The notes under the pieces are model-generated. The model made no database searches, was not told where the DNA came from, and worked only from the letters and a program-made list of their open reading frames with translations. A stretch of DNA of 33,271 bases from a virus, in the IMG/VR virus record IMGVR_UViG_3300045912_000570, positions 1-33,271 of that record. One strand, 5' to 3'. Numbering within the stretch: the stretch's first letter is position 1; every line of letters begins with the position of its first letter. Shown piece after piece: positions 1-25,614 of this stretch. The position numbers and the translations under genes were made by a program.

Positions 1-180
1 TGGCGCGGGGATCGAGTCAACCGCACGTTGTGGCGTGGGAATCGAGTCAACCGCACGTTGTGGCGTGGGAATCGAGTCAACCGCACGTTGTGGCGCGGGG
101 ATCGAGTCAACCGCACGTTGTGGCGTGGGAATCGAGTCAACCGCACGTTGTGGCGTGGGAATCGAGTCAACCGCACGTTG
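1..180 (+). repeat. six 30-bp tandem repeats, coding
   Basis: Six head-to-tail 30-bp units fill positions 1-180 and probably continue upstream. Two versions alternate: units 1 and 4 read gcgcgggga where units 2, 3, 5 and 6 read gcgtgggaa. The rest of each unit is identical. They are in frame with the gene ending at 680 and contain no spacers, so this is not a CRISPR array. Confidence 0.95.
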
Positions 181-680
181 TGGGCAGCGGTTACGCGCAG
201 TTGTCACTTCGCGGCAGAATTGTCGGCAAAGCGTCCGCCAACGTCGCGGTTTTGATTCATGGAACCAAAGCTAAAATAAAAGGCGGCAAGCAAACGAAAG
301 TCGTAATCAAGTCGCCGGCCGACTGGTGCGAATACTACGGCGTGCCGGTTAAACGTGGCGTTGCGATCCTCTACAAGGGTCTCAACGATCAATTCATCTC
401 GCCGCGTGGCGGCAAATATCAACCGGGCGAAATTCTTGGCGATGCCCCTGACTGGGACGGCGGTAAAGAAGAATGCGGCGGTGGTTGGCATTTTTCTCCG
501 CATCCGAAAATGACGCTCGAATTCAACAAAGAAGCTACGAAGTTTGTCGCGGTTCCGATCAAACTCAAAGACTTCGTTGTGCATCCCGACGGTGAGTATC
601 CGCAAAAGGTCAAAGGAAAATGCGGATGCGCTCCGATGCTTGAGGTTGATCAGAACGGAAAGGCCGTGGAGTCGAATTGA
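1..680 (+). CDS. 5'-truncated repeat protein with conserved C-terminal domain
   Basis: The reading frame is already open at base 3, so the true start lies upstream; the GTG at 30 is only an internal codon. The first ~60 residues are a decapeptide repeated six times, alternating AWESSQPHVV and ARGSSQPHVV. A globular C-terminal part follows, with the motifs ADWCEYYGVPV, GVAILYKGLN, FISPRG, PDWDGG and CGGGWHFSPHP. This pattern recalls a widespread phage and actinobacterial family of unknown function (DUF7666-like) whose N-terminus carries GNAHVVA-type repeats, probably a solenoid. There is no catalytic assignment. The stop TGA overlaps the next start, so the two genes are probably co-transcribed. 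Confidence 0.75.
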   Translation, partial: ARGSSQPHVVAWESSQPHVVAWESSQPHVVARGSSQPHVVAWESSQPHVVAWESSQPHVVGSGYAQLSLRGRIVGKASANVAVLIHGTKAKIKGGKQTKVVIKSPADWCEYYGVPVKRGVAILYKGLNDQFISPRGGKYQPGEILGDAPDWDGGKEECGGGWHFSPHPKMTLEFNKEATKFVAVPIKLKDFVVHPDGEYPQKVKGKCGCAPMLEVDQNGKAVESN

Positions 681-1012
681 ACCAACCCTCGCTATTCGTC
701 GAAACCGCCCACGGCTGGCAAGCGCCGCCGAAGTTTCACGGTTCGACCTTTGACGAAGCACGCGACCGGTTACGACTGACTGGACAACTTGGCCGGGTGT
801 ACGAAGTGTTGAAGTGTGGCCGCTGGATGACGTTGCCGGAAATTGAGGAAGCGATTAGGTCGCGGTGGCCGGACACGAATGACATCGTTTCGGCGATTTC
901 GGCGCGGATACGGCAACTGCGAACCGAATGCGGCGTGCCGGTGGAGAAAGAAAACCGGGGCGGTGGAACATGGGTGTATCGGTTGGGCGGGTCACAGGAA
1001 ACACAATTATGA
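677..1012 (+). CDS. winged-helix DNA-binding protein
   Basis: This 111-residue protein looks like a small winged helix-turn-helix domain. The core (about residues 35-107) has the helix GQLGRVYEVLKCG, then MTLPEIEEAI, a recognition-type helix VSAISARIRQLRTE and a wing ending GGGTWVYRL. Such folds are common in phage regulators, but the target is unknown. The best start is the TTG at 677, overlapping the upstream stop. The stop TGA lies inside an ATGA that starts the TnpB/Cas12-like gene, so the two are translationally coupled. That makes it a candidate regulator or accessory factor of the RNA-guided unit, which is inference. Confidence 0.7.
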   Translation: MNQPSLFVETAHGWQAPPKFHGSTFDEARDRLRLTGQLGRVYEVLKCGRWMTLPEIEEAIRSRWPDTNDIVSAISARIRQLRTECGVPVEKENRGGGTWVYRLGGSQETQL

Positions 1013-2220
1013 CCACGATTTGTAATAACTGCGGATTGCAACGCGACGGCGAAAAACTTCCGCGCGGTTGGAAGCGGATCAATAACGCCGCCTACTGCGG
1101 CGCGTGCATGAAAACCGCATGGATCATTAAGTCGGTGGCGCTGCGCGTGGCCGAGATAATCGACATGCAAGAAGGTGACACGTTTTTTTCGCCGTTCTCG
1201 AAGGCGTGGAGGTTGTCCACTGACTTAGCCAACTGGGCGCAGTTGGAATTGTTGAAGCGGGAACAGCCGCGCTTGCCGTCGATGACAAAGATGCCGAAGG
1301 CTGAGCCGTTTAATTTGTATGGTCATTTCACGAAACACTACCCGGAACGGTCGGCCTGGGACGGGGCCGCTGGATCGGCGTCGGCGATATTACAAGCGGT
1401 GTATCAAGGGTGGGTTGGCAAGTCGAATCGGAATCGGTTTAGCGTGATATGGAAGGGTGATGCGAGCGCGGCCTATTTCCGCTGGCCATACCCGTTCGTC
1501 GTCCGCAGTGCCGAAACAAAAATCGGTTGGACCGATCATGAAGGTGGCCGGTGGCCGTGGGTTAGCGTGACGTTGCCGGGTCGCCGGCTGATGTTGCGGT
1601 TAGCGCAGGGAACGGATTGGATTCGTTCGCTCCGCGACTTCGACAAGTTGTGTGACGGGTCGGCGTTGCTCGGTGACACAAAAATATGCGCCAAGTTCGC
1701 GGGTGGCAAGTTGAAAGGCGTCATGGTTCGTATTGCGGGACGATTCCCACGAACAGTATCCGCAAACGCTGGCAAGGTGGCCACGGTTTCGACGCAACCG
1801 AATGCGTTACTGCGATGCGATATTGAAGGATCGCAACGCGAATGGTGGTTACATATGCCGCACTTACGCGGGCTGATTGAGCGGTATGAAGTCCGTCGCG
1901 CGGAATTGGCGGACGACACGAAATTTGAGAAGCGATGGCCAGCGAAGAAACGAGCCAAGATTATCGGGAGCGGCAAGCCGCGCATGGAACGAATGGACGA
2001 CAACATTAAAACAGTGATCCAGCAAGCGGCCGCGCAGACGGTGGGCTATGCTGTCCGCAACGGTTGCGGGTCGATTGTGTATGACGATTCGTGCCGCGAT
2101 TTCTTGCCGACGTTTCGCTGGTTCGCTTTAGCGGAAAGATTCAAGCAAGTGGCCCATGCGAATGGGCTAGGGTTCACGGTTTTGAAAGGTGGTGAATCGA
2201 CACAAACTGATGCGGCCTGA
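1009..2220 (+). CDS. TnpB/Cas12-like RuvC-fold protein with N-terminal zinc ribbon
   Basis: The ATG at 1009 is chosen because it overlaps the upstream stop; this gives 403 residues. A zinc ribbon opens the protein (C5, C8, C30, C33). A helical part (35-140) and a beta-rich wedge-like part (145-248, with VSVTLPGRR) follow. The C-terminal half looks like the RuvC fold of TnpB/Cas12: strands at 256-283, a long basic helix (285-350), the strand SIVYDD at 355-360 in the RuvC-II position and an FRWFALAERFKQVAHANG helix. In TnpB and Cas12f the zinc finger and the RuvC-III Asp lie after this point; here the protein ends TDAA at 403. D271 could be a RuvC-I residue, but this is ambiguous. A CRISPR-type array begins 17 bases after the stop. 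Likely role: RNA-guided DNA binding, possibly without cleavage. The fold is fairly convincing; the function is inferred. Confidence 0.65.
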   Translation: MTTICNNCGLQRDGEKLPRGWKRINNAAYCGACMKTAWIIKSVALRVAEIIDMQEGDTFFSPFSKAWRLSTDLANWAQLELLKREQPRLPSMTKMPKAEPFNLYGHFTKHYPERSAWDGAAGSASAILQAVYQGWVGKSNRNRFSVIWKGDASAAYFRWPYPFVVRSAETKIGWTDHEGGRWPWVSVTLPGRRLMLRLAQGTDWIRSLRDFDKLCDGSALLGDTKICAKFAGGKLKGVMVRIAGRFPRTVSANAGKVATVSTQPNALLRCDIEGSQREWWLHMPHLRGLIERYEVRRAELADDTKFEKRWPAKKRAKIIGSGKPRMERMDDNIKTVIQQAAAQTVGYAVRNGCGSIVYDDSCRDFLPTFRWFALAERFKQVAHANGLGFTVLKGGESTQTDAA

Positions 2221-2237
2221 TTACTTGCAGGTAGTCG

Positions 2238-2471
2238 GGTGCGAGAGACATGGGAACGAGAGCAAGGCGCAGGCATAGAGCAATCCGAAGTTGAGAGCCT
2301 TGGGGTGCGAGAGACATGGGAACGAGAGCAAGGCGCAGGAAAGCTCCACTTTCCGGTATTCGACAAGGTGGTGCGAGAGGCAGGGGAATGAGAGCAAGGC
2401 GCAGGGCTGTCGTCAACGTGAATCAACTACCGATCAATGCGAGAGGTATGGGAATGAGAACCACAAAGGGA
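2238..2471 (+). CRISPR. mini CRISPR-type array: 4 repeats (last one decayed), 3 spacers
   Basis: Repeats of 36 nt start at 2238, 2304, 2370 and 2436, an exact 66-nt period. The first two are identical (ggtgcgagagacatggg, then aacgagagcaaggcgcagg). The third differs at three positions (2380, 2383, 2389). The fourth keeps about 19 of its first 24 bases and then diverges. The 30-nt spacers (2274-2303, 2340-2369, 2406-2435) are unrelated to one another. Decay increases away from the effector gene, which is normal polarity with the leader side upstream. Only 17 bases separate the array from the gene stop, so it is probably transcribed with the effector. No cas1 or cas2 is present. No convincing reading frame runs through it. 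Confidence 0.85.
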
Positions 2472-2620
2472 ACGGCTGACGTATTTCGGCGGCTGCTACG
2501 CCGAGGGCTGGTAACGGCTCCCCGCTCTCAGGGAGACACGGCCGGCCAGACTGGTCCAAGACGAACCGCACCGAATCCAGTGCGGGCCTTGCTCAGTCAG
2601 CCGTTCCTTTTGTGGTTTTC
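2456..2620 (+). ncRNA. structured RNA, tracrRNA-like candidate
   Basis: Bases 2456-2480 and 2596-2620 pair over 25 consecutive positions (23 Watson-Crick, G-U at 2458:2618 and 2468:2608), closing a ~165-nt domain. Inside are short perfect hairpins: 2486-2491/2499-2504, 2518-2522/2531-2535 and 2566-2571/2580-2585, with CTGG/CCAG (2508-2511/2546-2549) probably enclosing the second. The left arm starts inside the decayed terminal repeat. Between the last hairpin and the right arm lies a 9-nt segment complementary to the CRISPR repeat. This architecture fits a tracrRNA or omega-RNA-like scaffold. It could also be a processed transcript end. Expression is unproven. Confidence 0.7.
2586..2594 (+). 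other. anti-repeat segment
   Basis: GCCTTGCTC is the exact reverse complement of repeat positions 23-31 (GAGCAAGGC), the spacer-proximal end of the repeat. A further six-pair match, including one G-U, is possible between repeat GGGAAC and 2603-2608, after an internal loop. The second match competes with the 25-bp stem, so the RNA may switch pairing. This is what a type V tracrRNA anti-repeat looks like. Confidence 0.6.
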
Positions 2621-2690: not shown

Positions 2691-3470
2691 GTGGGACGCA
2701 TACGAACGATCAAACCGGCGTTCTTTACTAACGATGAAGTCGCCAATTGTGCGCCACTGACGCGCATTTTGTTCATCGGATTGTGGACATGCGCGGACAA
2801 AGAGGGCCGATTAGAGGAACGACCGAAGAGAATCAAAGCGGAAGTGTTGCCTCTCGATGACGCCGACGTCGTTGCGATGCTCGATGAATTGGAAGCCGCC
2901 AGCCTGATTGTCCGCTATACGGCCGATGATCGTAAGTACATACAGATTACCAACTTCGCTAAGCACCAACGCCCCCATCCGAAAGAGCCCAAATCGACGA
3001 TTCCGGAGCCGTGTTTTTCCACGGCGAAACACGGAAAGAAACGGCGGGCCGTGAAAAAGTCATCCGTACTTCAGGAAGGGAAGGAGTCTCAGGAAGGAGT
3101 CTCAGGAAAGGAACAAGTAAATACATGCTCGGAGCCGGCCGAGCCGGCATCCGAGCCGTCCGCATCGCCACCTATCCCGATTCTTGAATTTCCGACCGTC
3201 GGAAAACCAAAACGGAATTGGTCTTTGACTGCGGCCAAGCTCGCCGAGTGGGTCGAGGCGTACCCTGGAGTGGACGTAATCGCCGAATGCCGCAAGGCGT
3301 TGCAGTGGTGTCGAGACAACCCAACCAAGCAAAAAACCTTCGCCGGAATGCCGAAGTTTCTCTCAGGCTGGCTGGGTCGTTGCCAGAATCGTGGCCAGGC
3401 CCACGGTCCGGCGCCGCCCCGTGAATCGACGCTGGATAAGGCAAATCGATTGATGGGGATCGGAACATGA
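2691..3470 (+). CDS. replisome organizer / replication initiation protein
   Basis: A GTG start at 2691 follows a purine-rich ribosome site (gggaaggg) by about 10 bases and gives 259 residues. The N-terminus (MGRIRTIKPAFFTNDEVA, then LFIGLWTCADKEGR, RPKRIKAEVLPLDD and ITNFAKHQRPHP) is the winged-helix domain of phage replication initiators of the replisome-organizer/DnaD-like type. The C-terminus (WRDNPTKQ-type region, then KTFAGMPKFLSGWL) resembles the helicase-interacting tail of that family. It should bind the phage origin and recruit helicase or its loader. The stop overlaps the next gene's ATGA, and that gene may be the loader. No iteron-type origin was recognised inside the gene. Confidence 0.75.
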   Translation: MGRIRTIKPAFFTNDEVANCAPLTRILFIGLWTCADKEGRLEERPKRIKAEVLPLDDADVVAMLDELEAASLIVRYTADDRKYIQITNFAKHQRPHPKEPKSTIPEPCFSTAKHGKKRRAVKKSSVLQEGKESQEGVSGKEQVNTCSEPAEPASEPSASPPIPILEFPTVGKPKRNWSLTAAKLAEWVEAYPGVDVIAECRKALQWCRDNPTKQKTFAGMPKFLSGWLGRCQNRGQAHGPAPPRESTLDKANRLMGIGT

Positions 3471-4548: not shown

Positions 4549-4812
4549 ATGGCGAAGTGGATTGAGTTTCGATTGGTCGAACAGAAAGCCGGCGACAAAC
4601 GGACTACCAAGTCTTGGGAAGTCGTCTCGAAGCAGCAGCAAAAAGTCATCGGCTGGATCAGTTGGTTCAGTGGATGGCGCAAATACTGTTTCTTCCCCGA
4701 TGCTGCGACAGTCTTTGAACAAGTCTGCCTGCGTGATATTGCCGACTTTTGCGAACGCGAAACCAAGGCCCATTACGCCACCGTCAAACAACAACGAGCA
4801 CCGGTCGCATGA
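4549..4812 (+). CDS. small conserved-looking protein, function unknown
   Basis: The 87-residue product has an aromatic core (ISWFSGWRKYCFFP) followed by TVFEQVCLRDIADFCERET. That signature looks like a small phage-encoded protein I have seen only as hypothetical. It has no signal peptide or membrane segment. It sits between the interrupted helix-hairpin-helix gene and a nuclease-like gene, and its stop overlaps the next gene's ATGA at 4809. The context points to DNA metabolism, but no activity can be assigned. Confidence 0.65.
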   Translation: MAKWIEFRLVEQKAGDKRTTKSWEVVSKQQQKVIGWISWFSGWRKYCFFPDAATVFEQVCLRDIADFCERETKAHYATVKQQRAPVA

Positions 4813-5198
4813 GTTCACCAACGCAAAGGACGTTGAAGCTGCTCCGCAAATGCGGCTACCTCTGCGCGGTCGTGGAAAAATGGAACGCCCACGCCGGTAT
4901 TCGACAAGACCTTTTCGGGTTCGCCGATATCATCGCCGTTCATCGTTTCCGCGAGCCGCGCATGTTGTTGATCCAGGCCACCGGACACACGAATGTTGCC
5001 GGCCGGTTGGCCAAGGTCAAGCCGATGTTGCCACTGCGGATTTGGCTGGGAGCCGGCGGAGCGTTCGAGGTGTGGGGTTGGAACGGCAAGAAACTCCGGC
5101 GCGTGATTGTGACGGAGCGCACGCTGGCCGGCGTGCCGGTGGAGTTGAAGCATCGGCGGCGGATTAAGCAAGCGGAACAAAAGGGGCTATTCGCATGA
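4809..5198 (+). CDS. PD-(D/E)XK nuclease-like protein with altered active site
   Basis: The 129-residue product has the layout of a small PD-(D/E)XK or Holliday-junction-resolvase-like fold: an N-terminal helix (TLKLLRKCGY), WNAHAGIRQDLFGFADIIAV with D34 and D40, then strand MLLIQATG, where Q56-A57-T58 stands in place of the usual E-x-K. The C-terminal region (IWLGAGGAFEVWGW) supplies further strands. Related phage proteins often show this Q-x-T variant, so activity may be lost or changed. It probably acts on phage DNA during recombination or replication. Start and stop are both coupled to neighbours through ATGA overlaps. Confidence 0.6.
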   Translation: MSSPTQRTLKLLRKCGYLCAVVEKWNAHAGIRQDLFGFADIIAVHRFREPRMLLIQATGHTNVAGRLAKVKPMLPLRIWLGAGGAFEVWGWNGKKLRRVIVTERTLAGVPVELKHRRRIKQAEQKGLFA

Positions 5199-5675: not shown

Positions 5676-6287
5676 ATGTCGGCACGAGTGAAGCCTGCTC
5701 GAAAACACAAGATCATGGAACGTCGTGCCGAAGTGGCCCGACGGTATCTCCAAGGCGAAACGCAAATCGGCATCGGGCTGGCCCTGCGCGTGAGTCAGGC
5801 TACAGTGTCGATCGACTTGGCTCATTTACGCCAAGAATGGCGAGCCAACGCCGCCCTCGACATCGGCGAGTTGCAAGCCCGCGAGCTGGCCCGGCTGGAT
5901 CAAGTCGAGTCGGAGGCATGGGCTGCCTGGGAACGGTCGAAGCAGTCGCGAGAAACGCGTACGACTGGCACCGATGGCGACAAATCGCACGCCAGAATTC
6001 GGAAGGAAGACCAATGCGGCGATCCACGTTATTTGATCATCGTGCAAAACTGCATCGAGCGGCGCTGTGCGTTGTTTGGATTGGACAAGCCGACGAAGTC
6101 GATGGTCATGGTGGGCGGATCGGTGACAACAAATGACAACCGTCTTAGCCTCACCGCCGCCGACGTGCTCGCCGCTGAACAAATCATCGTTGAAGCGGGT
6201 TCAGGAATACATTCAGACGGTGGATCGCAATCCCTGGATCCCGCACTCGCCGCATCCGAGGCAGAGACAATTCCTGCTCCTGAATGA
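5676..6287 (+). CDS. terS: terminase small subunit-like protein
   Basis: This 203-residue protein lies directly before the terminase large subunit. Residues 10-55 carry a helix-turn-helix (RRYLQGETQIGIGLAL, then VSQATVSIDLAHLRQEW), which would bind the packaging site. A helical stretch follows (ARLDQVESEAWAAWERS), then GDPRYLIIVQNCIERRCALFGL, a pattern seen in small terminases of this kind of phage. The last ~50 residues are low in complexity and overlap the start of the large subunit by 155 bases in another frame. The role is inferred from the helix-turn-helix and position. Confidence 0.7.
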   Translation: MSARVKPARKHKIMERRAEVARRYLQGETQIGIGLALRVSQATVSIDLAHLRQEWRANAALDIGELQARELARLDQVESEAWAAWERSKQSRETRTTGTDGDKSHARIRKEDQCGDPRYLIIVQNCIERRCALFGLDKPTKSMVMVGGSVTTNDNRLSLTAADVLAAEQIIVEAGSGIHSDGGSQSLDPALAASEAETIPAPE

Positions 6288-7533
6288 CGTTCGCGAAGTC
6301 ATGTACGGCGGAGCTGCCGGCGGTGGCAAATCCGATGCACTGTTGATGGCGGCCGCTCAATATGTTCACTTGCCCGGTTACGCTGCCTTGCTGCTGCGGG
6401 CCACGTTTCGCGACCTGCAACAACCCAACGCGCTCATTCCACGATCTAAAGCCTGGTGGAGCGGCAAAGCCCAATGGCATTCGAAGGATATGCGCTGGAC
6501 GTTTCCCTCCGGCGCGACGATCACGTTTGGTTACCTCGAGCGCGACGACGACGTTTACCAATATCAAGGTGCCGAATTGCAATTCATCGGCATCGACGAG
6601 CTCACTCAGCATTCGGAATGGCGCTACCGGTATCTGTTCTCGCGTCTTCGCAAGCCGGTCGATGGTCACTTAGCCAACGTGCCGCTACGGATTCGGTCAG
6701 GTTCGAATCCCGGCGGCGCTGGGCACGAGTGGGTTTACAAGCGGTTTATCGACCAACGGACCCGGGCGCCGGGGGCTGTGTTTCTGCCGGCGTTGCTCCA
6801 AGACAACCCGTCGCTCGATCGTGAACAATATCTGGCATCGTTAGCCCATCTCGACCCAATTACGCGCAAGCAATTGGAAGAGGGTGACTGGAATGCGATC
6901 GCTGGCGGCCGATTCAAAAAGGAATGGTTGCGTTATTACGAGCGAATCGGCACGACGTTCAAGCTCGGCGAGCGAATGTACCCGATTGAAAAGGTCCGCA
7001 CTTGGTTCCTGACGGTCGATCCGGCGGCCAGCGTGAAAGAAACGGCCAAGGATGATCCCGATTACACCGTTATCAGCGCGTGGGGTTACACCAGTGATGG
7101 CCACCTGTTGTGGTTGGGCTGCGACCGTGCGCGGCTTGAGATTCCGGACATCCCGCCGCGCATGCACACCAACTACCTGCGGCATCGAGCACAAAAGGCG
7201 TTCGTCGAAGGGGGCGGCATGCAAAAGGGCGTGGGGCAGTCCGCTCGGCGGTTTATGCCGCCGATGAACGTCGTCATCGTGTCGGCCGACAAAGACAAAC
7301 TCGTCAAGGCGACGCCGTTTTTGAACATGGCCGAGGCTGGCCGGGTTTGGCTGCCGGCGCCCGGTGTGCAGCCAGGGTTTCCGCTCGAAGACGTGGAATC
7401 CGAGTTGCTGCGGTTCACCGGTGACCCGAAGCAGTCCGGGCATGATGACATCGTTGACGCCGCCGGCATTGCGGGGCGCGTGGTCACCAATCGGCTGGCT
7501 GGGCCGAGCCAGGCACCGCAGGTGTTACGATAG
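6133..7533 (+). CDS. terL: terminase large subunit
   Basis: This 466-residue protein is the packaging ATPase and nuclease. The start region is normal for the family (PWIPHSPHPRQRQFL at 34-48). Walker A is GGAAGGGKS (59-67, K66) and Walker B is FIGIDE (D155-E156). A coupling-type SGSNPGGAGHEW follows. The C-terminal RNase H-like nuclease begins at FLTVDPAAS (D296) and ends with a GHDDIVDAAG motif holding further acidic residues. It powers DNA into the prohead through the portal and cuts concatemers. The ATG at 6133 lies inside the small-subunit gene; a later start is not obvious before the conserved N-terminus. Confidence 0.93.
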   Translation: MTTVLASPPPTCSPLNKSSLKRVQEYIQTVDRNPWIPHSPHPRQRQFLLLNDVREVMYGGAAGGGKSDALLMAAAQYVHLPGYAALLLRATFRDLQQPNALIPRSKAWWSGKAQWHSKDMRWTFPSGATITFGYLERDDDVYQYQGAELQFIGIDELTQHSEWRYRYLFSRLRKPVDGHLANVPLRIRSGSNPGGAGHEWVYKRFIDQRTRAPGAVFLPALLQDNPSLDREQYLASLAHLDPITRKQLEEGDWNAIAGGRFKKEWLRYYERIGTTFKLGERMYPIEKVRTWFLTVDPAASVKETAKDDPDYTVISAWGYTSDGHLLWLGCDRARLEIPDIPPRMHTNYLRHRAQKAFVEGGGMQKGVGQSARRFMPPMNVVIVSADKDKLVKATPFLNMAEAGRVWLPAPGVQPGFPLEDVESELLRFTGDPKQSGHDDIVDAAGIAGRVVTNRLAGPSQAPQVLR

Positions 7534-9246: not shown

Positions 9247-10455
9247 ATGAAGTTTTGGAAGGACTTATTGCCGGCCGGCGAATTCACTGTTGGTGGACAA
9301 CGCTACGTATTCACCGAGGCGGACATCCAGCAAATGCTCCGCAACGGCGACGCCGCGTTGCAGAAACGTCAGCCCATTCCCGTCGGTTGGGAACATCATC
9401 CCGACCTGGTCGCCATGTCGGCGGCCAAGAGTCATTCCGAGGCCGATCGCATTGCCAGCCGATCGAAGTTTTACACCGGGCCGGTCGAGGGGTTTCGGTT
9501 GTCGCCGGACGATCCGACGATGCTGCAAGTCCTCGTCGATGCCAAAGACGACGAGGCTGATCGCGTGCAGCGTGTAGGATTTGTCTCGCCCGGATTGGTC
9601 CGCGACTGGACCACTGGCGATGGCACGCGGTATCCCGGCTGGTCGGTGGCTCATGTGGCCGTGACAGCCCAGCCCGTGAATAACCGCCAAGGCGGATTTG
9701 TGCCGCTGTCGCTGCCGGCAAACTTGGTTTGCTTGAGCCTTAGCGACAAGGAGGATCCCAAAGTGAATGACGACACAAAGCCCGACGATGACACGCCAGC
9801 GGCTGAACCCAAAGAAGAAAAACCGGAAGAAACTCCGGACGAACCAAAAGAACCGGTGATCATTGCACCTGGCGGCCCGCTCAAGGATGCTGTCGAGTTG
9901 GCAACCCAGCTCGGCCTGGTGATGGGCGATGACACCAGCGAAGCGACCTTCCTCGATCGCTTCGTTGTGGCGGCCCGAACCTTCTTAGCTACGCGCGATG
10001 TGGCCGCCACAACCGACCCCGCCGATCCCGGCACGGCGCCCGACGATGCTCAGCCGGTTCCCGTTGGCACGGGCGGTGTGCAAATGAGCTCGGCCCACAG
10101 CCAGCGATTACTGCAGCTCGAACGCGACGAATTAGCTCGTCGGATCCAAGGACTCACGGCCAGCGGCCGCATTTTGCCCGTCGTGGAAAAAGACCTGTTG
10201 AACCAACTCAACTCGGTCAATTTGTCGCTGACGACCGAGGCCAAGATTGCACCGTGTAAACTGCTGGATCGATTGGAAGCCTACGAGGCGCTGCCCGAGC
10301 AAAGCACGGAGTTTAGCGGCCAGTCGCGCGTCAACTTGTCGCAAGCGAATGTGATTGCCCGACCGCCCGACGGTCCGCCAAGGACGAAGGAAGAGGCCGC
10401 CAAGTCCGTGGATGGCCTTTTGGAATTAGCTAACGGCAAAAAGGCCCGCAAGTAA
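9247..10455 (+). CDS. head maturation protease / scaffold
   Basis: The 402-residue protein begins the head module. Residues 1-165 (PAGEFTVGGQRYVFTEADI, PIPVGWEHH, FYTGPVEGFRL, VGFVSPGLVRDW, WSVAHVAVTAQPVN, GGFVPLSL) follow the pattern of Mu gpI-like prohead proteases. H138-type and S-type catalytic residues cannot be fixed by eye. An acidic, Pro-rich linker (about 170-205) leads to a helical C-terminus (LLQLERDELARRIQG and onward) suited to an internal scaffold. It would direct shell assembly and be removed by proteolysis. The next genes are the decoration and capsid proteins, which supports the role. Confidence 0.75.
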   Translation: MKFWKDLLPAGEFTVGGQRYVFTEADIQQMLRNGDAALQKRQPIPVGWEHHPDLVAMSAAKSHSEADRIASRSKFYTGPVEGFRLSPDDPTMLQVLVDAKDDEADRVQRVGFVSPGLVRDWTTGDGTRYPGWSVAHVAVTAQPVNNRQGGFVPLSLPANLVCLSLSDKEDPKVNDDTKPDDDTPAAEPKEEKPEETPDEPKEPVIIAPGGPLKDAVELATQLGLVMGDDTSEATFLDRFVVAARTFLATRDVAATTDPADPGTAPDDAQPVPVGTGGVQMSSAHSQRLLQLERDELARRIQGLTASGRILPVVEKDLLNQLNSVNLSLTTEAKIAPCKLLDRLEAYEALPEQSTEFSGQSRVNLSQANVIARPPDGPPRTKEEAAKSVDGLLELANGKKARK

Positions 10456-10505
10456 CTAGGTTCTGAGACACTCGGCGGGCCTGCCCCGCTGCATGGAGAA
10501 TGCCA

Positions 10506-11279
10506 ATGTCGCTTGTCAATTCAGTGGAAATGCCGGGGCCGAGTGCGGTCCTATCCGAATCGCAACGGCGGTTGGTTCGCGGTTATCCGTCGAGCCTCAT
10601 CCTGCATGGTGTGGCCATTGCTTCGGCCACCGTGGACGCGGGCAACACGCCGACGACCGAGTTGCGCGCTGGCTTGTTAATGGGCAAGATCGCAGCCACG
10701 GGCCTATTCAAGCAATACGACCCCACTGCCACCGATGGCAGCCAGTACCCAATCGGTCCGTTGTACGAAGAGCGCAACATGCTCAACGCGGCCGGGACCG
10801 CGCAACAAGTAACCGGCCGAATCGTCATCGGCGGCTACCTGGTCGCCTCGCAAGTCATCAATCTGGATGCCCGGGCCCGACAGATGCTCTATGGCCGCAT
10901 CATTTTCGACGACATGATCCCGGGAGCGGCGCCCGGTTGGTTTGGTCCGGTCGTTAAGACGGCCGACTACACGTTGGTCGCTGCGGATTCGGGTTATTGC
11001 TTCACGACGCGCGGTGCGGCCGGGGCAGTGATCTTCGACCTGCCCACCACGATCCCCGCCGGCTTCCGAGCATTGTTCAAGAACGAAGCGGATCAAAACA
11101 TGACCGTGCGGTGCACGTCGAAGCTGGTGGCGTTGCATAATCTCACGGCGACCTCGGTGGCATTTTCCACCTCGTCGCAAAAGATTGGCGGCGGCATTGA
11201 AGTCATCGCCAATGATAACCAGACCAAGTACCACGTGATCAATCAATCGGCTGGTGCGAACACGATCACCGTAGCGTAA
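10506..11279 (+). CDS. head decoration protein with extra C-terminal beta domain
   Basis: The ATG at 10506 is preferred over 10500 because ggag lies about 8 bases upstream. About residues 35-140 resemble lambda gpD-like decoration proteins (GVAIASATVDAGNT, ELRAGLLMGKIAATGLFKQYDP, ARQMLYGRIIFDD). Residues 150-257 form a separate beta-rich domain (YTLVAADSGYCFTT, VIFDLPTTIPAGFRA) of the kind found on fibres and surface proteins. The N-terminal part would sit on capsid three-fold positions and stabilise the shell. The extra domain would be displayed outward. It lies between protease and major capsid protein. Confidence 0.7.
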   Translation: MSLVNSVEMPGPSAVLSESQRRLVRGYPSSLILHGVAIASATVDAGNTPTTELRAGLLMGKIAATGLFKQYDPTATDGSQYPIGPLYEERNMLNAAGTAQQVTGRIVIGGYLVASQVINLDARARQMLYGRIIFDDMIPGAAPGWFGPVVKTADYTLVAADSGYCFTTRGAAGAVIFDLPTTIPAGFRALFKNEADQNMTVRCTSKLVALHNLTATSVAFSTSSQKIGGGIEVIANDNQTKYHVINQSAGANTITVA

Positions 11280-23856: not shown

Positions 23857-25614
23857 GTGGCGAGTCAGGGACCGAATAGTCCAAGCGCATCAAGCGAAGA
23901 TTCATCAGTCGGCACCGTTGTTTGGTCGTCGCTGTCGAATGTTTATTCAAGCAATGATTCGCGGGCGATCAGTGGATCACTCGGCGGCACCGCGCCGGTA
24001 ATAACAAGATACTTGGTTGCAACGGGATTTGGATTTTCGATTCCTTCGGGAGCGACCATTGATGGCATTGTTGTTGGCATTGAGCGACGATACTCCGGGG
24101 TCGGCACGATAAGAGATTATCGAGTTCGCATTGTTAAAGGCGGAAGCATTGGAAGTACCGACCGGGCAACATCCACCAACTGGACGACCTCAGACGTTTA
24201 TGAAGACCACGGCGGATCAACCGACCTGTGGGGAGAAAGGTGGACCACCTCCGACATAAATTCGTCTAATTTTGGCGTCGCGATTTCGGCTCAAAAATTT
24301 TCTGGTGTTGGCTCGCCGACAGTAGGTATTGACCACATTCGCATCACCGTTTACTACACGGCTAGTAGCGGATCAGCCACCATCACCGCTAACGCCGGAT
24401 CATTCACTCTCTCTGGTCAATCCGCCACACTTACACGCGGGCTGAAAGCCACTGGTGGAACTGGCACGTTCACGTTGTCCGGTCAATCCGCCAATCTGTT
24501 ACGTGGGCTGAAAGTTACTGGCGGCACCGGCACGTTTACGCTGTCGGGGCACGCCGCGACGTTGCTCCATAATCACGTTGTTGGCGCGGGGGTTGGTTCG
24601 TTCACGCTCAGCGGTCAGGCCGCGACTCTGGTCAAAAGCTACCCGCTCTCGGCTGGGACCGGATCATTTACACTCACTGGCAATGACGCGACTTTCACGC
24701 GGACCTATGTCGTGGGTGGGGGCACCGGATCATTCACGCTTGGCGGTCAAGCGGCCGGGCTATTGCGTGGACTCAAAGTCGTGGGGGGAGTGGGTTCGTT
24801 CGCGCTGACGGGGCAGGCGTCCGGGCTGATTCGTGGCTTTCGGCTCGACGCTGGAGCGGGTTCATTCTCGTTGACCGGACAGGTATCCGGCTTACTGGTC
24901 AATCGGAAGATCAGCGCGGGCTCAGGCGCATTCGAAGTCAACGATCCGGACGCGCCGGGCGGCCCTGAGGGCGGCGGTGCAACCTCGTTACGTGTCGATC
25001 GCTTGCCGGCCGACCAGACCTGGCACGCCGTCATCGAAGTCACCACCATCCGCCATCGCCGGCATACTATTCTCGACGAGTATTGCAGCGCGGACAATGA
25101 TTGCGAAAATTGCGACTCTCCATTGCCGGACCCCGTGTCGAGCGACTCGGACGACAGCAGTGATTCGGGCGAATCGAATTGCTCGCATGATTTCGCCGAG
25201 GGCGGCGATTTACCGGACCCGAATTTGCCGCCGCGGTGGTATGTGCAATCACTCTTAGACTGGTGCAGTTCCATCGCCGCGCCCATTCGCCCGCCAATAT
25301 GCGAGTCGTTATCCGCCGCCGCTTCGCCGTGTCTCGCCGATCCTTTATTGACGACCGACCAGCAGGTGTGGGATTGCATTGTGGCCGCTGATACCGTGGT
25401 GGCCACTTACATCCTAAGCCGGTGGCAGCAATGGTTGCAAAATCATTACGGATACGCGGCGGCCCTTGGCCTGGGCATTGACACCGGCGACCCCAACACG
25501 GTGCCCGAAATCAAACTGCAATGGGCGCGGGGGCATTGGAAAAATGCCCGCGTTGTGCGTCGGCGTTGTTTCGTGCTCACCGCCGAGGAGGTCTGTGCGC
25601 TGTGCGATATTTGA
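23857..25614 (+). CDS. repeat-bearing tail fibre or adhesin-like protein
   Basis: A GTG start at 23857 gives 585 residues. Residues 1-175 form a beta-rich domain (ATGFGFSIPSGATIDGIVVGIE, and later GIDHIRITVYYTA) typical of phage fibre proteins. Residues 181-356 are eight 22-residue repeats of the type GSFTLSGQAATLLRGLKV, with a ninth partial. A Cys/Asp/Ser-rich stretch (CSADNDCENCD, SDSDDSSDSGESNC) comes next. The C-terminus (DPLLTTDQQVWDCIV, WLQNHYGYAAALG) is a distinct compact domain. This is likely a fibre whose length varies by repeat number. Confidence 0.65.
   Translation: MASQGPNSPSASSEDSSVGTVVWSSLSNVYSSNDSRAISGSLGGTAPVITRYLVATGFGFSIPSGATIDGIVVGIERRYSGVGTIRDYRVRIVKGGSIGSTDRATSTNWTTSDVYEDHGGSTDLWGERWTTSDINSSNFGVAISAQKFSGVGSPTVGIDHIRITVYYTASSGSATITANAGSFTLSGQSATLTRGLKATGGTGTFTLSGQSANLLRGLKVTGGTGTFTLSGHAATLLHNHVVGAGVGSFTLSGQAATLVKSYPLSAGTGSFTLTGNDATFTRTYVVGGGTGSFTLGGQAAGLLRGLKVVGGVGSFALTGQASGLIRGFRLDAGAGSFSLTGQVSGLLVNRKISAGSGAFEVNDPDAPGGPEGGGATSLRVDRLPADQTWHAVIEVTTIRHRRHTILDEYCSADNDCENCDSPLPDPVSSDSDDSSDSGESNCSHDFAEGGDLPDPNLPPRWYVQSLLDWCSSIAAPIRPPICESLSAAASPCLADPLLTTDQQVWDCIVAADTVVATYILSRWQQWLQNHYGYAAALGLGIDTGDPNTVPEIKLQWARGHWKNARVVRRRCFVLTAEEVCALCDI
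24397..24924 (+). repeat. eight in-frame 66-bp repeats within the fibre gene
   Basis: Each unit encodes 22 residues of the form GSFTLtGQaatLlrglkvtgGt. Units 1-2 and 6-7 share RGLKv or RGFRL, while 3-5 diverge more. A ninth unit (GAFEVND) is cut short. They probably form a beta-rich shaft. Confidence 0.9.

What the first reader, a model, noticed from the sequence alone, without database searches (positions are those of the whole stretch)
1009..2220. RuvC-like protein that may be nuclease-dead, with zinc ribbon moved to the N-terminus
RuvC-II-like SIVYDD (355-360) and its following helix are clear. The usual zinc finger and RuvC-III Asp downstream are absent; the protein stops at 403. RuvC-I is uncertain: KVATVST (256-262) has no acid, while D271 is a possible one. 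The N-terminal C5/C8/C30/C33 ribbon may replace the missing finger. Nuclease-dead TnpB/Cas12 relatives (TldR, Cas12m-type) act as repressors.
Basis: partly seen in the sequence, partly recalled or inferred. Interest (0 to 1): 0.8.

Follow-up and report, generated by a model that had tools for sequence, protein, structure and literature searches.

The report
Nuclease-dead phage mini-CRISPR (Cas12f-like) system
A bacterial virus carries a tiny relative of the CRISPR protein Cas12f whose DNA-cutting site is broken, directly followed by its own short CRISPR-like array, so it probably uses guide RNAs to bind and silence other DNA rather than cut it.

Summary
The 403-aa protein has no family hit alone, but one remote full-length homologue turned up in another virus (P0003 in L057, 30% identity). 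P0003 and the two-sequence profile hit Cas12f (PADLOC E 5e-6; PDB E 6e-5), and Foldseek with weak models returns Cas12f first. Aligned to TnpB, RuvC-I Asp is Ser261 (Arg in P0003), the RuvC-II acid survives (Asp359 / Glu355), and both proteins stop after strand beta5, without the C-terminal zinc finger and RuvC-III Asp.

P0003's gene also has a repeat pair downstream.

Best reading: a phage-encoded, nuclease-dead Cas12f-like (V-F/V-U) effector with its own mini-array, acting as an RNA-guided DNA-binding repressor. Kinship and dead triad are supported; RNA guidance and targets are inferred. 'Zinc ribbon moved' is not supported.

The parts
1009..2220 (+). Cas12f-like effector gene, 403 aa: N-terminal zinc ribbon (C5/C8/C30/C33), helical REC-like part (~26-135), beta WED-like part (~170-242), truncated RuvC (~250-394)
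1774..1794 (+). RuvC-I strand KVATVST (256-262); the catalytic Asp position is Ser261
2071..2088 (+). RuvC-II strand SIVYDD (355-360); D359 at the catalytic Glu position (Glu355 in homologue P0003)
2173..2220 (+). beta5 (FTVLKG) then end of protein: TNB zinc finger, RuvC-III Asp and alpha4 absent
   Evidence: TnpB layout from PMC10097598
2237..2273 (+). CRISPR-like repeat 1 (37 nt)
2274..2302 (+). spacer 1 (29 nt)
2303..2339 (+). repeat 2, identical to repeat 1
2340..2368 (+). spacer 2 (29 nt); its 15 nt CCGGTATTCGACAAG also occur at 4894-4908
2369..2405 (+). repeat 3 (33/37 identical to repeat 1)
2406..2434 (+). spacer 3 (29 nt)
2438..2459 (+). degenerate terminal repeat 4: keeps the 22-nt 5' core, lacks the 3' GCAAGGCGCAGG
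2456..2620 (+). highly structured element (25-nt arms closing internal hairpins), candidate tracrRNA or processing/termination structure
   Evidence: (z -5.5); no Rfam match
2586..2594 (+). candidate anti-repeat GCCTTGCTC, exact complement of repeat nt 24-32, in a partly unpaired stretch of the element

Best explanation
Window 1009-2620 is a minimal phage-encoded CRISPR system: a nuclease-dead, C-terminally shortened Cas12f-like (type V-F/V-U) effector, its own three-spacer array, and possibly a tracrRNA directly after it. Shown: the family relationship by profile and fold search, loss of two of three catalytic acids in two divergent members, and repeats (an array here, a pair in the other) directly 3' of the effector gene in two different viruses. 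Inferred: the operon is transcribed rightwards, crRNAs are released (each of repeats 1-3 supplying the 5' handle of the spacer that follows it), the effector binds crRNA with or without the structured RNA, unwinds a matching target and stays bound, blocking transcription or replication of a rival phage or a host gene. No adaptation genes were recognised, so spacers are probably fixed or change only by recombination.
For: Homologue P0003 in L057. Cas12f/Cas12u3 model hits for P0003, E 5.3e-6 and 2.8e-5. Pair profile to OsCas12f 9nzq E 6e-5, with two stretches, one covering RuvC-II and its following helix. Foldseek top 8 hits of the P0001 model are Cas12f or Cas12m; the top 17 of the P0003 model are Cas12f, the first being a dCas12f-gRNA complex (9n9c, E 1.2e-6). 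RuvC-I Asp replaced by Ser/Arg and both proteins end after beta5. Array: repeats 33-37/37 identical versus spacers 5-9/29, period exactly 66 nt, degenerate distal repeat. Repeat pair also downstream of P0003's gene, with a different sequence. Structured element z -5.5; 9-nt anti-repeat reached by 6/500 shuffles.
Against: Only two family members are known. Both AlphaFold models are weak (mean pLDDT 42), so active-site geometry could not be tested, and TM-scores of the Foldseek hits are about 0.2. P0001 alone hits no family. The array is short, and the L057 pair would make only one spacer. The anti-repeat duplex is only moderately unusual: about 1% of shuffles reach it, and it ranks about 7th among distinct sites of the window; none was found in L057. 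No convincing protospacer was found.
Confidence: 0.7

Rival explanations
1. The repeats are not a CRISPR array for this protein but replication iterons or protein-binding sites upstream of the replication-type gene at 2691; the dead RuvC protein would then be an ordinary DNA-binding protein.
For: Four copies of a 22-nt core at exact 66-nt spacing upstream of gene 2691-3470, whose replication role is my inference. An exact spacing that is a multiple of 11 bp fits protein-bound direct repeats.
Against: Conservation covers 37 nt with an abrupt change to unrelated 29-nt stretches, the usual CRISPR dimensions; a Cas12f-like gene ends 16 nt away; and the homologous gene in L057 also has a repeat pair just downstream with different sequence and 71-nt period.
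Confidence: 0.13
2. The array is a mini-array that serves a host CRISPR effector, and the adjacent protein is an independent TldR-like repressor or a decoy.
For: Phage mini-arrays that borrow host effectors are known (PMC11656645).
Against: Such arrays carry the host's repeat and usually one or two spacers (PMC11656645); here repeat and effector are adjacent and the pairing recurs in a second virus. The host is unknown, so the repeat could not be compared.
Confidence: 0.1
3. The effector still cleaves or nicks, with D271, D359/D360 and perhaps D401 forming an unusual active site.
For: D271 is acidic in both members (D/E) and the RuvC-II acid is kept.
Against: D271 aligns to the strand after RuvC-I, not to the catalytic column. 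D401 is absent from P0003, which ends GARE. The RuvC-III helix is missing altogether.
Confidence: 0.07
4. A degenerating remnant: a Cas12f gene that lost its 3' end and has no function.
For: The terminal repeat is degenerate and the C-terminus is missing.
Against: Two members at 30% identity end at the same place and keep blocks such as DDTKFEKRWPA; no frameshift or stop occurs inside the ORF; repeats 1 and 2 are identical.
Confidence: 0.05

Closest known systems
Cas12f (type V-F, Cas14) and V-U3
   Same: Size class, REC-WED-RuvC order, sequence and local structure similarity, array beside the gene, an N-terminal zinc finger, possible tracrRNA
   Different: RuvC-I Asp replaced; TNB finger, RuvC-III and alpha4 absent; zinc ribbon at the extreme N-terminus; phage-borne
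dCas12f (nuclease-dead Cas12f, PDB 9n9c/9n9m)
   Same: Dead Cas12f; top Foldseek hit of the P0003 model
   Different: I recall dCas12f working with a sigma factor in bacterial genomes (memory, not tested); no sigma factor was identified here, though not every neighbouring ORF was scanned; that dCas12f lacks the RuvC C-terminus in the same way was not tested
TldR (TnpB-like nuclease-dead repressors)
   Same: Phage-encoded, RuvC inactivated, expected repressor (PMC13418256)
   Different: TldR uses one gRNA beside the gene without a CRISPR array; TldRs descend from TnpB, this is closest to Cas12f
Cas12m (V-M)
   Same: Compact type V effector that binds and silences without cutting; MGE-borne (PMC10442227, PMC11656645)
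   Different: Cas12m2 keeps a full RuvC with an H-D-D triad and its TNB; this protein lacks the third part. Cas12m2 ranks third, below Cas12f
Type V-like effectors near arrays in landfill phages (PMC12607003)
   Same: Small viral proteins beside arrays, some lacking RuvC-III or all RuvC motifs, no adaptation genes

Membership tests
Cas12f / type V-F | Sequence similarity to Cas12f effectors | tested here: met
   P0003 E 5.3e-6 and pair profile E 6e-5 to PDB Cas12f; P0001 alone gives none
Cas12f / type V-F | REC-WED-RuvC fold | tested here: inconclusive
   Models pLDDT 42; Foldseek ranks Cas12f first at E down to 1.2e-6 but with TM about 0.2
Cas12f / type V-F | D-E-D catalytic triad | tested here: not met
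   Ser261 / Asp359 / absent
Cas12f / type V-F | C-terminal TNB zinc finger inside RuvC | tested here: not met
   Both proteins end after beta5
Cas12f / type V-F | CRISPR array next to the gene | tested here: met
   2237-2459; repeat pair in L057
Cas12f / type V-F | tracrRNA | tested here: inconclusive
   Structured element with 9-nt anti-repeat, about 1% of shuffles
Cas12f / type V-F | Asymmetric dimer, RNA-guided DNA binding | not testable with these tools
   Needs biochemistry
TldR | Dead RuvC in a TnpB-like protein | tested here: met
TldR | Single gRNA with one guide instead of a CRISPR array | tested here: not met
   Three spacers between repeats
Cas12m (V-M) | Full RuvC with non-canonical triad and TNB | tested here: not met
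   RuvC-III and TNB absent

The most novel reading that the evidence does not exclude
A separate, phage-confined lineage of nuclease-dead type V effectors that discarded the last third of RuvC together with its zinc finger, keeps an N-terminal zinc ribbon, and runs an all-in-one operon (effector, array, tracrRNA placed after the array) for RNA-guided silencing in phage-phage or phage-host conflict.
Probability: 0.4. Interest if true: 0.75.

Novelty: new variant of a known kind. Interest (0 to 1): 0.62.

Why it matters
It would be one of the smallest and most reduced type V effectors with its own array, showing that RNA-guided DNA binding can survive without RuvC-III and the TNB finger. It adds an independent case of nuclease loss in a phage, next to TldR, Cas12m and dCas12f, and offers a compact natural CRISPRi protein to test.

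Tried and rejected
Single-sequence searches of Pfam, PHROGs, PADLOC, NCBIfam, PDB, INPHARED and PLSDB: nothing for P0001. IMG/VR by whole-protein peptides, by repeat pattern and by a YDD..LP.F.W motif: no relatives; the repeat-pattern hits were REP-like CTCGTTCCCAAGC repeats. GTDB genomes by peptides and by the motif: none. Profile search of about 1,500 genomes of four phyla: none; one Chloroflexota hit with three internal stops was chance. The 30-nt tandem repeat at 1-183 was considered as a second array and rejected: it encodes decapeptide repeats in ORF 30-680. Spacer targets: no convincing match in phages or plasmids. Spacer 2's 15-nt match to window 4894-4908 (1/3000 shuffled spacers reach 15) covers only the PAM-distal end and lacks the conserved Trp-Asn codons of that gene family, so it is left as suggestive. 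L003's weak tblastn match was spurious. The L057 stretches 10427-10546 and 10650-10850 gave no significant anti-repeat.

Full report
Observation. The window is itself a linear IMG/VR virus record of 33,271 bp. The ORF 1009-2220 codes for 403 aa. The start is plausible: ATGA overlap with the gene at 677-1012 and AGGAA upstream. Other genes are those of a tailed phage: terminase, capsid protein E, portal, minor head protein.

Family. P0001 alone has no relative in Pfam, PHROGs, PADLOC, NCBIfam, the PDB, INPHARED or PLSDB. Using only the RuvC half as query gave one relative in IMG/VR, L057 (IMGVR_UViG_3300027513_000003, 46 kb). Its protein, P0003, aligns over the full length at 30% identity, with the N-terminal cysteines, LxRGWKR, KAWxxSTxLANW, WxGxAS...FRxPxP, DDTKFEKRWPA and LPxFxWF in common. 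P0003 hits the PADLOC Cas12f and Cas12u3 models at 5.3e-6 and 2.8e-5. The two-sequence profile hits PDB Cas12f 9nzq at 6e-5, in the REC/WED part and around RuvC-II. AlphaFold models are poor (pLDDT 42), yet Foldseek puts Cas12f or Cas12m in the first eight places for P0001 (best E 5.8e-4) and Cas12f in the first seventeen for P0003 (best E 1.2e-6). TM-scores are about 0.2, so the global fold is not shown by the models; local structure plus sequence carry the signal.

Active site. Against six TnpB proteins, hhalign (E 0.0015, probability 16.5%, columns 251-399) and a joint MAFFT alignment agree. KVATVST / KVLVLRR sits on the RuvC-I strand KVIGIDLG, so the catalytic Asp is Ser261 in P0001 and Arg258 in P0003. 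IVYDD / VVYEN sits on the RuvC-II strand, with D359 / E355 at the Glu position. Both proteins end after the next helix and strand. In TnpB the triad is D191, E278, D361, and the TNB zinc finger is inserted between beta5 and alpha4 (PMC10097598), so the family lacks TNB, RuvC-III and alpha4. D401 is not conserved. The dead-nuclease reading rests on two members ending at the same point, not on one truncated gene.

Zinc ribbon. C5/C8/C30/C33 is matched by C3/C5/C29/C32 in P0003. Known Cas12f has a zinc-finger domain between WED and REC besides the TNB finger (PMC10097598, PMC10606334). Whether the ribbon here corresponds to it is untested; 'moved from the C-terminus' is not needed.

Array. Sixteen nt after the stop codon begin three 37-nt repeats (two identical, one 33/37) at exact 66-nt period, with 29-nt spacers that share only 5-9 of 29 positions, and a fourth repeat that keeps its first 22-nt core and loses its 3' twelve bases. 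The core has no other match in the window, and none is expected by chance. A degenerate far-end repeat fits transcription in the direction of the gene. In L057 a 28-nt repeat pair with 71-nt period lies about 120 nt after the stop; 71 is not a multiple of three, so it is not a coding repeat.

Structured RNA. The segment 2456-2620 has 25-nt complementary arms closing several hairpins (fold of 2440-2640: z -5.5, no shuffle as stable) and no Rfam match. GCCTTGCTC at 2586-2594 is an exact complement of repeat nt 24-32, a length reached by 6 of 500 shuffles, and its bases are unpaired with probability 0.34-0.75. The longer duplex (-39 kcal/mol) is reached by 9/1000 shuffled repeats and 15/1000 shuffled elements, and sites elsewhere in the window reach similar energies. 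The terminal repeat, which has no spacer of its own, is the one lacking this stretch. A tracrRNA is therefore plausible, not shown.

Targets. No spacer had a convincing match in phages or plasmids. Spacer 2 shares 15 nt with gene 4809-5198, which may hint at a homologous gene in a related phage, but only at the PAM-distal end.

Mechanism and context. Inactivation of Cas12 RuvC has occurred many times, and several such effectors silence by binding (V-C, V-M; predicted for V-O, V-P; PMC12669027). TldRs are phage-encoded dead relatives that repress host flagellin (PMC13418256). Landfill phages carry type V-like proteins beside arrays, some without RuvC-III or any RuvC motif (PMC12607003). By analogy this system most likely blocks transcription or replication of a rival phage or a host gene. 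This step is inference.

Membership. It is Cas12f-like by sequence but fails two defining features (triad and TNB), so I do not file it as Cas12f proper; it is a dead, reduced variant on the Cas12f/V-U side. Only two members are known, no bacterial genome among about 1,500 sampled from four phyla had one, and Planctomycetota, a guessed host group, could not be searched.

Noticed in passing
window 1-183: Six copies of a 30-nt tandem unit at the contig edge; in ORF 30-680 they encode decapeptide repeats (VVAWESSQPH-like), not a CRISPR array.
   Followed up: partly
window 4809-5198: Small gene with GIRQDLFGFADII motif; relatives in Methylophilales phage Venkman and Xanthomonas phages at 37-40% identity. 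It holds 15 nt identical to spacer 2 (4894-4908).
   Followed up: partly
window 24403-24545: 66-bp tandem repeat inside ORF 23857-25614, probably a protein repeat.
   Followed up: no
L057 10423-10701: A second ORF starts on the stop codon (ATGA) of the homologous effector and runs CLPCG...RHLC through the repeat pair; it could be a small zinc-binding peptide or chance.
   Followed up: no
L057 8953-9255 and 11061-12389: The homologous effector is flanked by a VRR-NUC-like ORF (overlapping start) and a cytosine DNA methyltransferase-like ORF, both judged by eye from the translation.
   Followed up: no
window 6133-7533: Terminase large subunit has only remote IMG/VR relatives (34-46% identity, L002-L007); the held records show no effector homologue.
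   Followed up: partly
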